A stretch of 10,488 bases of DNA, taken from positions 1 to 10,488 of the forward strand of contig JAQGPE010000022.1 of the NCBI GenBank assembly GCA_028293225.1, in the 5' to 3' direction. The notes beneath the pieces were generated by a model. It did no database searches. It was not told where the DNA came from and saw nothing but the letters and a program-made list of their open reading frames with translations. Within the stretch, counting starts at the first letter, position 1. Each line of letters begins with the position of its first letter. Below, one piece after another: positions 5,734-8,152 of the stretch. The DNA is from Akkermansiaceae bacterium (GTDB lineage: Bacteria; Verrucomicrobiota; Verrucomicrobiia; Verrucomicrobiales; Akkermansiaceae). The translations under genes and the position numbers were made by a program.

Positions 5734-6756
5734 ATGCCGATGATCTCCCGCCGCAAGATCAAGTATGACGTCTCCCCTCTCCTGCGGCAGTACCTGCACC
5801 GCTTCGACCGGCAGAAGGAGATCCCCCAGGTTTACACGGATCTGACCCGCTTCGCCGGGTCGATGCCGTATGAGGACCCGCAGGGCAAGGAAACGCTGTG
5901 GCTGACGGTCTTCTACACGCCGGAGCTGATCGAGGAGCTGCGGCCGAAGCTGACCCAGATCTACGCGGAGTTGAAGATCGGCGGGGAAAGCGATCACCAC
6001 GAGCACCTCAGCGTCGACCGCATCGACTTCGGCGAGTTCGGGAATTCGCGGCCGTTCCGGATCCGGGTGACCAACCCCTACAATGACAACTCCGACTACT
6101 TCTACGTGAAGCAGGCGGACGCCTCCCGCATCTACGGCCTGGAGCTCGAGCACATCCTGTCGCCGAACCGGATCAACTACCTGGTCAATGGCAACACGCT
6201 GATCGAGGAGCACATCGCCGGCGTGCCGGGGGACGCCTTCCTGAGCAACCATCTGCCGCGGCCGGAATTGAACAAGGTCCGCATCGCCAAGGAGTTCACC
6301 AAGTTCAACGAGCGCTGCTTCATTCGCCTGCTCGGCGACATGCGCAGCGTCAACTACGTGGTCGATATCACCCCGGACTTCGAGGAGGTGCAGTACCGGG
6401 TGCGGCCGATCGACTTCGACCAGCAGAGCTACGAGCGGCGCGGCAAGACCTATCTGTCCTACCGCTTCGACTCGAACAAGGCGGTCACCAAGCTGGCCTT
6501 CGACGTCCTGAACCGGAAATCGATCGCGCAGTATGTGGCGGAGGAACACGCTCAGATGACCCGCCGCGCCAAGGTCGAGAGCCAGCGGCTGCGGGCGCTG
6601 CTGGGCATCATGCGCCGCGACGAACTGGCGCCGCTGGACCACGTCGCCTCGCTGGCCGCGGACCTGGAGAAATTCCACGGCACCGATTGCTTTCACGACT
6701 GCAAGACCATGGGCGAACTCACCGCCGCGCATGTCTCGCTGATGCTGGATTTGTGA
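5734..6756 (+). CDS. Uncharacterised protein, possible divergent kinase-like fold
   Basis: I do not recognise a named family. The 340-residue protein is soluble, with no signal peptide or membrane helix. Several segments look like a protein-kinase/APH-type fold. FYVKQAD has a Lys near 126 that could be the beta-3 Lys, and LELEHIL has Glu near 137-139 as on helix C. LIEEHIAGVPGDAFL (about 156-170) reads like a kinase hinge. LGDMRSVNYVVD has Asp202 and Asn207 in the D-x4-N spacing of catalytic loops, though His is replaced by Leu, and PIDFDQQSY has Asp227 where a metal-binding DFG/DFD Asp would be. The C-terminal 80 residues are helical and charged. The match is by eye and unproven. The gene starts 3 bases after pyrE, so it is probably in the same operon, but nothing in the sequence ties it to pyrimidine metabolism. 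The ATG has no Shine-Dalgarno sequence and may rely on coupling. Confidence 0.85.
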   Translation: MPMISRRKIKYDVSPLLRQYLHRFDRQKEIPQVYTDLTRFAGSMPYEDPQGKETLWLTVFYTPELIEELRPKLTQIYAELKIGGESDHHEHLSVDRIDFGEFGNSRPFRIRVTNPYNDNSDYFYVKQADASRIYGLELEHILSPNRINYLVNGNTLIEEHIAGVPGDAFLSNHLPRPELNKVRIAKEFTKFNERCFIRLLGDMRSVNYVVDITPDFEEVQYRVRPIDFDQQSYERRGKTYLSYRFDSNKAVTKLAFDVLNRKSIAQYVAEEHAQMTRRAKVESQRLRALLGIMRRDELAPLDHVASLAADLEKFHGTDCFHDCKTMGELTAAHVSLMLDL

Positions 6757-6796
6757 GAGGGTGACACTATCGGACAAGTGCTGCCGGACGCCTGTC

Positions 6797-6849
6797 GAAG
6801 GTGGCTGATGCGTCCCGCTTCAGCACGAAAAGCTCACGACCGCAGGTCG
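6797..6849 (+). repeat. REP element, left copy of an inverted pair
   Basis: The element begins GAAG, then the tetranucleotide GTGG (6801-6804), then an imperfect palindrome. CTGA (6805-6808) pairs with TCAG (6820-6823) and GCG (6810-6812) with CGC (6816-6818), around a TCC loop and one T/T mismatch. After CAC, three variable bases and AAGCTCAC comes a second small hairpin, CGACC (6837-6841) with GGTCG (6845-6849) around GCA. A 5' GTRG tetranucleotide followed by a hairpin is the hallmark of REP elements mobilised by RAYT transposases. The T-rich stretch just downstream (6851-6862) could let the second hairpin act as a weak terminator for the pyrE operon. Confidence 0.7.
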
Positions 6850-6901
6850 CACTTCCTTTTCTGCTAATAAGAGAAAACGTCCCCTTTCTTCAATGATCCA
6901 G

Positions 6902-6954
6902 CAGCCTTCGGCTGTGAGCTTCCAGTGCTGAAGCGGGACGCATCAGCTACCTTC
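6902..6954 (-). repeat. REP element, right copy of an inverted pair
   Basis: Read on the minus strand it begins GAAG, then GTAG (6950-6947), then the same imperfect palindrome as the left copy, then CAC, three differing bases, AAGCTCAC and a second hairpin CAGCC/GGCTG (plus-strand 6902-6906 with 6910-6914). In the first 30 bases the only difference from the left copy is A for G in the GTRG head. In the second hairpin the two middle base pairs differ from the left copy, but pairing is kept. The outer end overlaps the last two bases of the L-rhamnose isomerase stop codon. Confidence 0.7.
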
Positions 6955-8152
6955 ACGCGTAACTCTGCAGAGTCACAATCCCGAGTTCCTGACGCCGGCG
7001 GGTGCGCTCGGCAGCCGCCTTTCCAGCATAGCCGGAAGCACGGTGCGCCTGCAGCGGATCCGGAGCCAGTCCCCTCGCGGCGCGCCATGATTCCAAGGCA
7101 GCCGAGACGTCGGTGTTGAAGGCTTTTTTGAGGATCATCTCAGCGTCCACCACGTTACACTCCGCCTGCGCCCGGGCCAATGCCGGGAGGTCCACCAGCG
7201 CCGCCTTCGCATAAAGCTCCTGGGCGGTGCAGACCGTCTGGATCATCGCCTCGATCTTCGGCTTCAGGTTGTGCGACTGGTCGATCATGTACTCGATCTC
7301 CGGATACACGCCGCCATTCTCCCAGGCGTAGAGGTGGATCTCGTGGAAGATCCGGAAGATCTGGTAGGGGTCGATGGAACCGAGGGTTAGGTCGTCATCG
7401 GCATAGCGGCGGTCATTGAAATGGAAGCCGCCGAGCATGCCCTCATCCAGCAGCCAGGCGACGATCTGCTCGATGTTCTGCGACAGATAGTGGTGCCCTG
7501 TATCCACCAGCACCTTGGCCTGCGGACCGGTCTTCTTCGCGGTGAGAAAGGCCATGCCCCAGTCCGCCATGTCGGTCTGGTAGAAAGCGGGTTCGAAAGG
7601 CTTGTACTCGATGAGTAGTACCTGGCCCGGTGCGAGATGCGAATGAGTGGCCTCCAACACTTCCTCCAACCGCTTCTTGCGCGCGCGGATGCTGTCCTGG
7701 CCGGGGTAGTTGGTGCCATCCGCAATCCACAACGACACCGCCCGGCTGCCGGTGGCCTGGCCCAGCAGAACACTGTCGACCAGGTGCGCGGCCGCCTGTT
7801 CGCGGGCGGCGGGATCTGGGCTGGCGATCGAACCCCACTTGTAAATCTGGTCCTGGAACAGGGTCGGATTGATCGAGCCAATGGCGATGCCCAGCGCCTG
7901 CGCCTTGCGCACCACCTCCCCCGGATCGGTGCCCGGCGTGAAGTCCCACAGCACGTGCACGGCGATGGTTGGACAGCACCCGGTCAGGCGGTGCACATGC
8001 GAGGCATCGGCCAGCTTGTCATCGAGATCGATCGCCGCCGCAGGCTGATGGAACTTGCCGAAACGCGTGCCGGTGTCGGCGAAACCCCACGAGGGAATTT
8101 CGATGCGGAAGGCGTCGAGCGAGCGGTGGATGAGTTCCGTGGGTGAATCCAT
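6953..8152 (-). CDS. rhaI: L-rhamnose isomerase, Pseudomonas stutzeri type
   Basis: A xylose-isomerase-like TIM-barrel sugar isomerase that converts L-rhamnose to L-rhamnulose in the cytoplasm, the first step of rhamnose catabolism. Of 399 residues, the metal-site segments are LIEYKPFEPAFYQTDMADWG (Glu182), VLVDTGHHY (Asp217, His220), GGFHFNDRRYADDDLTLGS (His244, Asp252, Asp254) and Asp291. The spacing of these residues agrees with the two-metal site of the P. stutzeri enzyme as I recall it (Glu219, Asp254, His257, His281, Asp289, Asp291, Asp327), so the site appears intact. These enzymes often also act on other aldoses such as L-lyxose or D-allose. No rhamnulokinase, aldolase, transporter or regulator is in the window, so the gene stands apart from a rhamnose operon. 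It follows the NlpC/P60 gene by 60 bases. ATG at 8152 lacks a Shine-Dalgarno sequence. Its TGA overlaps the edge of the REP pair. Confidence 0.88.
   Translation of the reverse strand: MDSPTELIHRSLDAFRIEIPSWGFADTGTRFGKFHQPAAAIDLDDKLADASHVHRLTGCCPTIAVHVLWDFTPGTDPGEVVRKAQALGIAIGSINPTLFQDQIYKWGSIASPDPAAREQAAAHLVDSVLLGQATGSRAVSLWIADGTNYPGQDSIRARKKRLEEVLEATHSHLAPGQVLLIEYKPFEPAFYQTDMADWGMAFLTAKKTGPQAKVLVDTGHHYLSQNIEQIVAWLLDEGMLGGFHFNDRRYADDDLTLGSIDPYQIFRIFHEIHLYAWENGGVYPEIEYMIDQSHNLKPKIEAMIQTVCTAQELYAKAALVDLPALARAQAECNVVDAEMILKKAFNTDVSAALESWRAARGLAPDPLQAHRASGYAGKAAAERTRRRQELGIVTLQSYA

What the first reader, a model, noticed from the sequence alone, without database searches (positions are those of the whole stretch)
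6797..6954. Inverted pair of GTRG-headed REP elements in a convergent intergenic space
Seen directly: 30-base arms in inverted orientation matching at 29 of 30 positions, each with GTGG or GTAG followed by an imperfect hairpin (CTGA/TCAG and GCG/CGC stems). Known: REP elements mobilised by RAYT (REP-associated tyrosine) transposases have a 5' GTRG tetranucleotide and a hairpin, and inverted pairs form REPIN/BIME units. Inferred: this genome carries a REP family and probably a RAYT gene outside the window. The single mismatch falls inside the GTRG head at its purine position, as expected for this class.
Basis: partly seen in the sequence, partly recalled or inferred. Interest (0 to 1): 0.75.

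Follow-up and report, generated by a model that had tools for sequence, protein, structure and literature searches.

The report
Verrucomicrobial REPIN between convergent genes
This is one of several dozen copies of a small, hairpin-forming, probably mobile DNA element scattered between the genes of one bacterium; the element is of a known kind, but the transposases that carry such ends in its relatives often sit, in frame, inside housekeeping enzymes.

Summary
Observation confirmed. The inverted arms at 6797-6826/6925-6954 match 29/30; the element spans about 6787-6952. The genome holds 33 copies of the core (0 in the reversed control) and 76 covariance-model matches at E<=1e-3, in two subfamilies. 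Twelve complete copies are head-to-head doublets with GTRG feet 148-152 bp apart, conserved arms, variable spacer. None of 24 strong-family sites lies in a well-scoring gene; of 19 with both neighbours, 12 are convergent, 0 divergent. Hairpin 2 shows compensatory changes. This is a REPIN of the GTRG REP superfamily. The predicted RAYT was not found in this 62%-complete genome, so mobilisation by one stays inference; but around the RAYT group nearest to it in relatives, 25 of 30 loci have inverted GTRG hairpins, mostly of the same 4+8+3+8 layout (0 of 30 shuffles), against 11 of 29 and 1 of 19 in less selected sets. Unlike a textbook REP, about 14 bases outside the foot are conserved and each arm has a second hairpin. 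Unexpected lead: 24 of those 30 RAYTs lie in frame inside IspG; others in MetH, LeuRS or TPR proteins.

The parts
6787..6852 (+). Left unit (A arm): outer 14 nt GACGCCTGTCGAAG, GTGG foot, hairpin 1, hairpin 2 CGACCGCAGGTCG and CAC tail
   Evidence: covariance model R1, 92.0 bits, E 6.1e-20
6801..6804 (+). GTGG foot, left
   Evidence: GTGG in 32 of 33 core hits of the genome
6805..6823 (+). Hairpin 1 left, CTGATGCG-TCC-CGCTTCAG (one T.T mismatch)
   Evidence: consensus structure of 30 units
6837..6849 (+). Hairpin 2 left, CGACC-GCA-GGTCG; also picked up as terminator-like on both strands
   Evidence: compensatory pairs
6853..6898 (.). Variable inner spacer
   Evidence: mean pairwise identity about 51% against 87-88% in the arms over 12 doublets, length kept
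6902..6914 (-). Hairpin 2 right, CAGCC-GAA-GGCTG on the minus strand (B arm type)
6928..6946 (-). Hairpin 1 right, same sequence as on the left
6947..6950 (-). GTAG foot, right (the only GTAG among 33)
6899..6961 (-). Right unit (B arm) as matched by the model; 6953-6961 is in fact the native gene end
   Evidence: R1, 73.1 bits; orthologs
5734..6756 (+). Left neighbour gene, no Pfam family, convergent
6953..8152 (-). Right neighbour gene, xylose-isomerase-like TIM barrel (AP_endonuc_2), convergent; its stop codon is 2 nt from the GTAG foot

Best explanation
The feature is one copy of a species-specific REPIN: a non-autonomous doublet of two GTRG-footed REP units in head-to-head inversion, scattered between genes (shown). 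It most likely spread as a single-stranded hairpin intermediate recognised at the GTRG foot and hairpin by a RAYT (HUH-Tyr) transposase supplied in trans (inferred; no RAYT was found in this genome). Placement next to 3' ends of genes probably reflects where insertions are tolerated (inferred). Once in place, hairpin 2 with its pyrimidine tail could work as a weak two-way terminator or mRNA 3' end, as a by-product (inferred).
For: 33 copies of the core, 0 in reversed control; 76 model matches at E<=1e-3 (my count of the list), 150 of 4022 candidates scored. 12 complete doublets with GTRG-GTRG distance 148-152 bp, arms 87-88% identical, spacer 51%; in 11 of 12 one arm is of type A, and in 10 of 12 the other is strictly of type B: length is kept while sequence drifts, as passages of PMC3116915 describe for REPINs. 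Hairpin 2: 3 of 5 pairs with changes on both sides, 23 cells against 6.7 +/- 3.6 in shuffles, 0 of 500. 24 sites, none inside a well-scoring gene; 12 convergent, 7 tandem, 0 divergent of 19, binomial P 4.8e-4 for >=12 convergent if a quarter are expected. Lineage-specific: 0 of 115 relatives hold the 30-mer at <=3 mismatches. Same layout in the genus: GTRGCTGNNGCRTCYYGCNNCAG in 11 of 18 genomes, this one included, 0 in the reversed control; in all 100 non-own hits the free positions can pair (99 Watson-Crick, 1 with G.T, read by eye). RAYTs of relatives are bracketed by GTRG hairpins: 25 of 30 loci nearest to the G017 RAYT, 0 of 30 shuffles; G002, G017, G013 in detail. No target duplication of 5 nt or more in 11 doublets.
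Against: No RAYT in the assembled 62% of this genome (the last without a positive control). A congener at 97% completeness (G011) also has the motif (16 hits) and no RAYT match. The RAYT-REP bracket is common only in one RAYT group: by the same rule 11 of 29 genus loci and 1 of 19 of the top RAYT-family loci have it, and of 30 top-scoring RAYT loci only one held the GCRTCYYGC motif, at its edge. Conservation runs 14-24 nt outside the GTRG foot in nearly all own units, not so in 12 congener units: the foot is not the outer end in this family. Hairpin 1 is almost invariant within the family and has no change on both sides, so within this genome it has no covariation support of its own, and the number of covarying pairs alone (3) is reached by 43 of 500 shuffles. 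Hairpin 1 carries a T.T mismatch. No copy was seen to move; no empty site could be shown, as the left neighbour gene was not found beside the right one in relatives.
Confidence: 0.85

Rival explanations
1. A MITE of a DDE insertion sequence: the 38-nt inverted ends are ordinary terminal inverted repeats and GTGG is an accident.
For: Conserved inverted ends are longer than a REP, about 38 nt, and reach outside GTGG. Several copies are singletons whose far partner, if any, may lie on another contig, and I did not search their neighbours for DDE transposases.
Against: No target duplication of 5 nt or more at any boundary 0-30 nt outside the foot in 11 doublets (2-4 nt not excluded). The doublets, about 150 bp between feet, are too short to hold a gene. 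The foot-hairpin core is shared with repeats that bracket RAYTs in relatives. The core GTGG hairpin recurs in a second own subfamily, GTGG in 21 of 21 motif hits, though the motif searched begins with GTGG and allows 3 mismatches.
Confidence: 0.07
2. Mainly a functional RNA/DNA signal, a bidirectional terminator or 3' mRNA stabiliser kept by selection between convergent genes.
For: 12 of 19 sites convergent, 0 divergent; at the convergent sites 16 of 24 gene ends lie 10-35 nt from the modelled element; hairpin 2 is terminator-like on both strands, 2 sites found against 0.2 in shuffles; compensatory changes.
Against: The 30-mer is absent from 115 relatives, and the right neighbour's 12 congener loci hold no GTRGCTG-type motif at <=3 mismatches, so that gene does without it elsewhere. 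Position bias is also what a tolerated transposon would show, and is described for REPs in general (PMC3733652, section 15).
Confidence: 0.08

Closest known systems
GTAG (GTRG) REP superfamily, e.g. the Opitutus terrae families (PMC3733652: abstract, sections 5, 15, 16 and passages seen)
   Same: Unpaired GTRG foot directly followed by a GC-rich hairpin with a short loop; head-to-head dimers, heterodimers, spacers with small hairpins; between convergent or tandem genes; GTGG in the majority of one O. terrae family.
   Different: About 14 further conserved bases outside the foot and a second conserved hairpin in each arm; not compared with the 24 published consensus sequences, which are in a figure that is not held.
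REPINs of Pseudomonas fluorescens SBW25 (PMC3116915, passages)
   Same: Inverted REP doublets of fixed length with drifting spacer that fold into one long hairpin.
   Different: [quoted passage not shown] tens of copies found, not hundreds; no cognate RAYT seen.
RAYT-REP cassettes (REPtrons; PMC2817692 and PMC6006769, passages)
   Same: In relatives RAYT genes of one group are bracketed by two inverted GTRG hairpins of the layout seen in the window.
   Different: In relatives most of the closest cassettes lie in frame inside other genes; in this genome none was found.

Membership tests
REP of the GTRG superfamily | GTRG foot next to a palindrome | tested here: met
   GTGG/GTAG + 8-bp stem with one mismatch, loop TCC; 32 GTGG and 1 GTAG among 33 hits of a pattern that asks for GTRG but allows 3 mismatches anywhere
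REP of the GTRG superfamily | Many dispersed copies in one genome | tested here: met
   33 core hits; 76 model matches E<=1e-3
REP of the GTRG superfamily | Extragenic | tested here: met
   24 first-subfamily sites, none inside a well-scoring ORF; one (C356) overlaps a doubtful ORF by 27 nt; home-made gene calls. Second-subfamily sites not examined
REP of the GTRG superfamily | Palindrome kept by compensatory changes | tested here: met
   Hairpin 2 in this genome; hairpin 1 across the genus; hairpin 1 without such change within this genome
REP of the GTRG superfamily | Foot forms the outer end of the unit | tested here: not met
   14-24 nt outside are conserved; only the window's right arm starts near the foot. 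In 12 congener units no upstream conservation is seen. I file the element in the superfamily in spite of this, as an extended member, since the paper describes GTAG units adjoined to other sequence (PMC3733652)
REPIN (REP doublet) | Two inverted REPs at fixed distance, folding into one hairpin | tested here: met
   12 doublets, 148-152 bp, consensus fold
REPIN mobilised by a RAYT | RAYT gene in the same genome bracketed by the same REP | tested here: inconclusive
   None found, genome 61.84% complete; present in congeners with related REPs
REPIN mobilised by a RAYT | Excision or transposition of the doublet | not testable with these tools
   needs reads or strains of this species
DDE-type MITE | Target-site duplication | tested here: not met
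   0 of 11 doublets with 5 nt or more; shorter ones not resolvable because TCGA in the end is itself a palindrome
Rfam RNA family | Match above gathering score | tested here: not met
   0 matches in the window

The most novel reading that the evidence does not exclude
This REPIN population was made by a RAYT of a group that lives as an in-frame guest inside essential enzymes. In relatives the cassette, REP-RAYT-inverted REP, sits within IspG at one junction, its REP ends translated as linkers, its HUH and tyrosine residues conserved and its divergence tracking that of the host enzyme; other members sit in MetH, LeuRS and a TPR protein. Housing in a gene that cannot be lost would explain how a transposase persists for long times while making only small REP families, and the solo in-frame REP at the same junction of ispG in G014 would be the scar of a loss.
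Probability: 0.35. Interest if true: 0.75.

Novelty: new member of a known kind. Interest (0 to 1): 0.45.

Why it matters
The element itself adds a well-defined REPIN family, with an unusual outer extension, in a verrucomicrobial group. It also leads to a testable answer to how RAYTs, which (from general knowledge) stay in genomes without spreading much, are kept: in this bacterial family many are nested in frame in housekeeping enzymes, with REP ends that match the wandering ones in layout.

Tried and rejected
Exact searches for the 24-nt core in named genomes and in viral contigs gave nothing (records near the window's own genome may be left out there). The two Y1 genes of this genome were considered as mobilisers and set aside: IS200-like by score (L031 reaches only 22.4 bits against a RAYT cut-off of 80, L032 has no RAYT match), with other palindromes as flanks and no core repeat within their loci at <=5 mismatches. 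A RAYT hidden in this genome's ispG was checked: the gene is split over contigs C417 and C725, but the junction on C725 is of the short, RAYT-less length (39 residues). The first motif scan of 30 top-scoring RAYT loci (L126-L155) found the GCRTCYYGC motif in only one (L137, at its edge); the link became clear only with the RAYT group nearest to the bracketed one. So the 25 of 30 is a figure for that group, chosen by similarity to a nested RAYT, not for RAYTs at large: with the same rule and a Markov control (0 in each set) I get 24 of 29 in that set, 11 of 29 in the genus set L156-L185 and 1 of 19 in L126-L155, where 1, 1 and 11 loci were dropped for lack of a central HUH motif. Under the stricter rule, 16 of the 30 genus loci show no hairpin at all, and only L156 and L158 carry the GCRTCYYGC-type motif. 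Synteny for an empty site failed: the left neighbour was not found in any of the 12 congener loci of the right neighbour, which reach about 1.5 kb or less beyond it.

Literature: no paper on RAYTs nested in IspG, MetH or LeuRS turned up in six full-text searches (seen as listings; open-licence PMC only), which is not proof of absence.

Full report
What is there. The window's inverted arms are real. Each arm is a unit of about 66 nt: an outer stretch ACGCYTGTCGAAR, the foot GTGG, hairpin 1 (CTGATGCG-TCC-CGCTTCAG), a short linker and hairpin 2. Hairpin 2 comes mainly as CGACC-GCA-GGTCG followed by CACTT (A arm), as CAGCC-GCA-GGCTG followed by CTGGAT (B arm), or as CGGCC/GGCCG. Thirty units were aligned (of the 33 core hits the cut-off ends C220 and C115 and the fused palindrome C366 were left out). 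RNAalifold returned both hairpins unprompted. In hairpin 2, three of five pairs change on both sides in 23 cells, against 6.7 +/- 3.6 in shuffles, 0 of 500; the bare number of such pairs is reached by 43 of 500 shuffles. Hairpin 1 hardly varies and so is silent within this genome.

How many and where. The core with up to 3 mismatches occurs 33 times in the 4.5-Mb, 820-contig, 61.84%-complete genome G000, 0 times read backwards. A covariance model of the unit finds 99 matches at E<=1, with 150 of 4022 first-look candidates scored: 35 at 64 bits or more, 76 at E<=1e-3 (my count from the list; two at C366 overlap on opposite strands). The weaker ones that I read (18 loci, L106-L123) mostly form a second subfamily, RATGCYTGCCAA-GTGGCTGACACGTCCCGTGGCTGC with the same kind of hairpin 2; 21 motif hits, all GTGG, of which one in L115 and one in L121 are first-subfamily units; the motif itself starts with GTGG and allows 3 mismatches. 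With a simple codon-usage gene caller trained on seven window genes, the 24 sites of the first subfamily lie outside well-scoring genes; one (C356) overlaps a doubtful ORF by 27 nt. Five sites lack a called neighbour on one side. Of the other 19, 12 are convergent, 7 tandem and 0 divergent; the neighbours at C371 score weakly. At least 12 of 19 convergent has P 4.8e-4 if a quarter are expected.

The doublet is the unit. Twelve complete pairs have GTRG-to-GTRG distances of 148-152 bp; in eleven one arm has the A tail, and in ten of these the other has the B tail CTGGATC, in either orientation to the contig; arms average 87-88% identity, the middle 51% in a gapped alignment. That is the pattern described for REPINs in PMC3116915 (passages). 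No direct repeat of 5 nt or more flanks 11 doublets tested (C308, at a contig end, was left out).

The window copy. Its right foot GTAG follows the stop codon of the minus-strand gene by two bases. All 12 congener orthologs found (of 17 congeners searched) end in the same SYA-stop, so the gene end is native and the outer stretch is missing on this side. The model's match out to 6961 therefore overruns into the gene. Whether the outer stretch was lost later or never entered cannot be told from one genome.

Relatives. The 30-mer is absent from 115 relatives at <=3 mismatches. The model gives only weak matches there (best 33.5 bits, 10 of 115 genomes, with at most 45 candidates scored per genome and stricter filters). 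Those I read (L064, L067, L068, L071, L075, L076) are repeats of the same layout: GTRG, an 8-bp stem starting CTG, loop 3, mostly followed by a second hairpin. The pattern GTRGCTGNNGCRTCYYGCNNCAG occurs in 11 of 18 genus genomes (this one included), 0 in the reversed control, and its four free positions can pair in all 100 non-own hits, one with a G.T. In 12 congener units the bases before GTRG show no conservation to the eye, so there the foot seems to be the end.

The transposase. RAYT-family matches (NF047646) occur in 60 of 67 genomes searched, this one included (34 over the cut-off); in G000 the one match is the weak IS200-like L031. One weak model match in G002 lay beside a RAYT, and the RAYT turned out to be bracketed by GTGGCTGGAGCGTCCCGCTCCAG in inversion. 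Its two nearest relatives, in G017 and G013, are bracketed likewise. Among 195 family genomes the RAYT of G017 finds matches in 105, not in G000; of the 30 loci returned, 25 have an inverted pair of GTRG hairpins at least 80% alike on either side, against 0 of 30 shuffled loci. By the same rule, with a small change of how loci are centred, it is 24 of 29 there, 11 of 29 in the genus set of RAYTs and 1 of 19 in the top RAYT-family set, 0 in every Markov control: the bracket belongs to particular RAYT groups. Many of the hairpins in the first set read GTRGCTG-nn-GCRTCYYGC-nn-CAG; the window's differs from GTGGCTGCGGCGTCCCGCCGCAG at four positions. I conclude that the window's REP belongs to the REP type of this RAYT group; that a member of the group moved it is inference, since G000 shows none.

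Where those RAYTs live. In G002, G017 and G013 the RAYT lies in one open frame with IspG: GcpE model positions up to 243-245, then RAYT, then the rest (in G002 the RAYT is seen by NF047646 at 66.5 bits, under its cut-off, and not by Pfam). 24 of the 30 family loci qualify as nested in IspG by sequence anchors; the query was itself a nested RAYT. In the protein collection, 111 of the 120 best of 1456 matches carry IspG anchors on both sides (only proteins of fusion size could be candidates). In the 98 of those 120 with all anchors and 700-900 residues, RAYT and IspG distances correlate, r 0.72 against at most 0.16 in 999 permutations, and both histidines, the tyrosine and the NP motif stand in at least 97% of rows; the list was picked by RAYT similarity. 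In the genus, 13 congeners and G000 have a short junction (39-48 residues) where 3 have 285-290; G005 gave no anchor. In G014 the short junction encodes a solo REP, GTGGCTGGAGCGTCCCGCTCCAC, in frame. Other RAYTs lie in frame in MetH (L254, L255, L257), in TPR proteins (L159, L172, L173, L256) and in leucyl-tRNA synthetase (L162), by Pfam domains on both sides in one open frame. That REPs alone can lie inside genes is known (PMC3733652, section 15); for whole RAYT cassettes I found no report. G002 is probably Haloferula helveola: P0107, so named, has a contig of the same length, 5,677,198, which places the genus near Haloferula/Luteolibacter.

Verdict. The finding stands as a REPIN; the RAYT of this genome is still to be found; the element is ordinary in kind, with an outer extension that is not; and following it leads to nested RAYTs, which are worth a study of their own.

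Noticed in passing
L156, L157, L158 (G002, G017, G013); 24 of 30 loci L229-L258; P0001-P0120: RAYT-REP cassette in frame inside ispG at one junction, catalytic residues conserved, divergence tracking IspG.
   Followed up: partly
L254, L255, L257 (MetH); L162 (LeuRS); L159, L172, L173, L256 (TPR proteins): Other RAYT domains in frame inside large host proteins.
   Followed up: partly
L188 at 2338 (G014): Solo in-frame REP at the ispG junction where relatives hold the RAYT cassette.
   Followed up: partly
L106-L123 (G000): Second REP subfamily of this genome with GTGGCTGACACGTCCCGTGGCTGC core.
   Followed up: partly
L011, L024, L027, L101 (G000 C716, C638, C115, C530): Four copies whose right arm carries a related hairpin-rich insert of roughly 40-70 nt (TTGATTTGCCC...) within hairpin 1.
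   Followed up: no
L030/L121 (G000 C366): A fused unit in which hairpin 1 is bordered on both sides by the outer stretch, a single near-palindrome.
   Followed up: no
L016 (G000 C270): Both flanks of the doublet are the same sequence in inversion for some 40 nt outside it, close to the contig end, perhaps an assembly artefact.
   Followed up: no
L031, L032 (G000 C727, C92): Two IS200-like Y1 transposase genes, each between its own inverted palindromes as read by eye.
   Followed up: partly
G011: 97% complete congener with 16 motif copies but no RAYT match in three searches.
   Followed up: no
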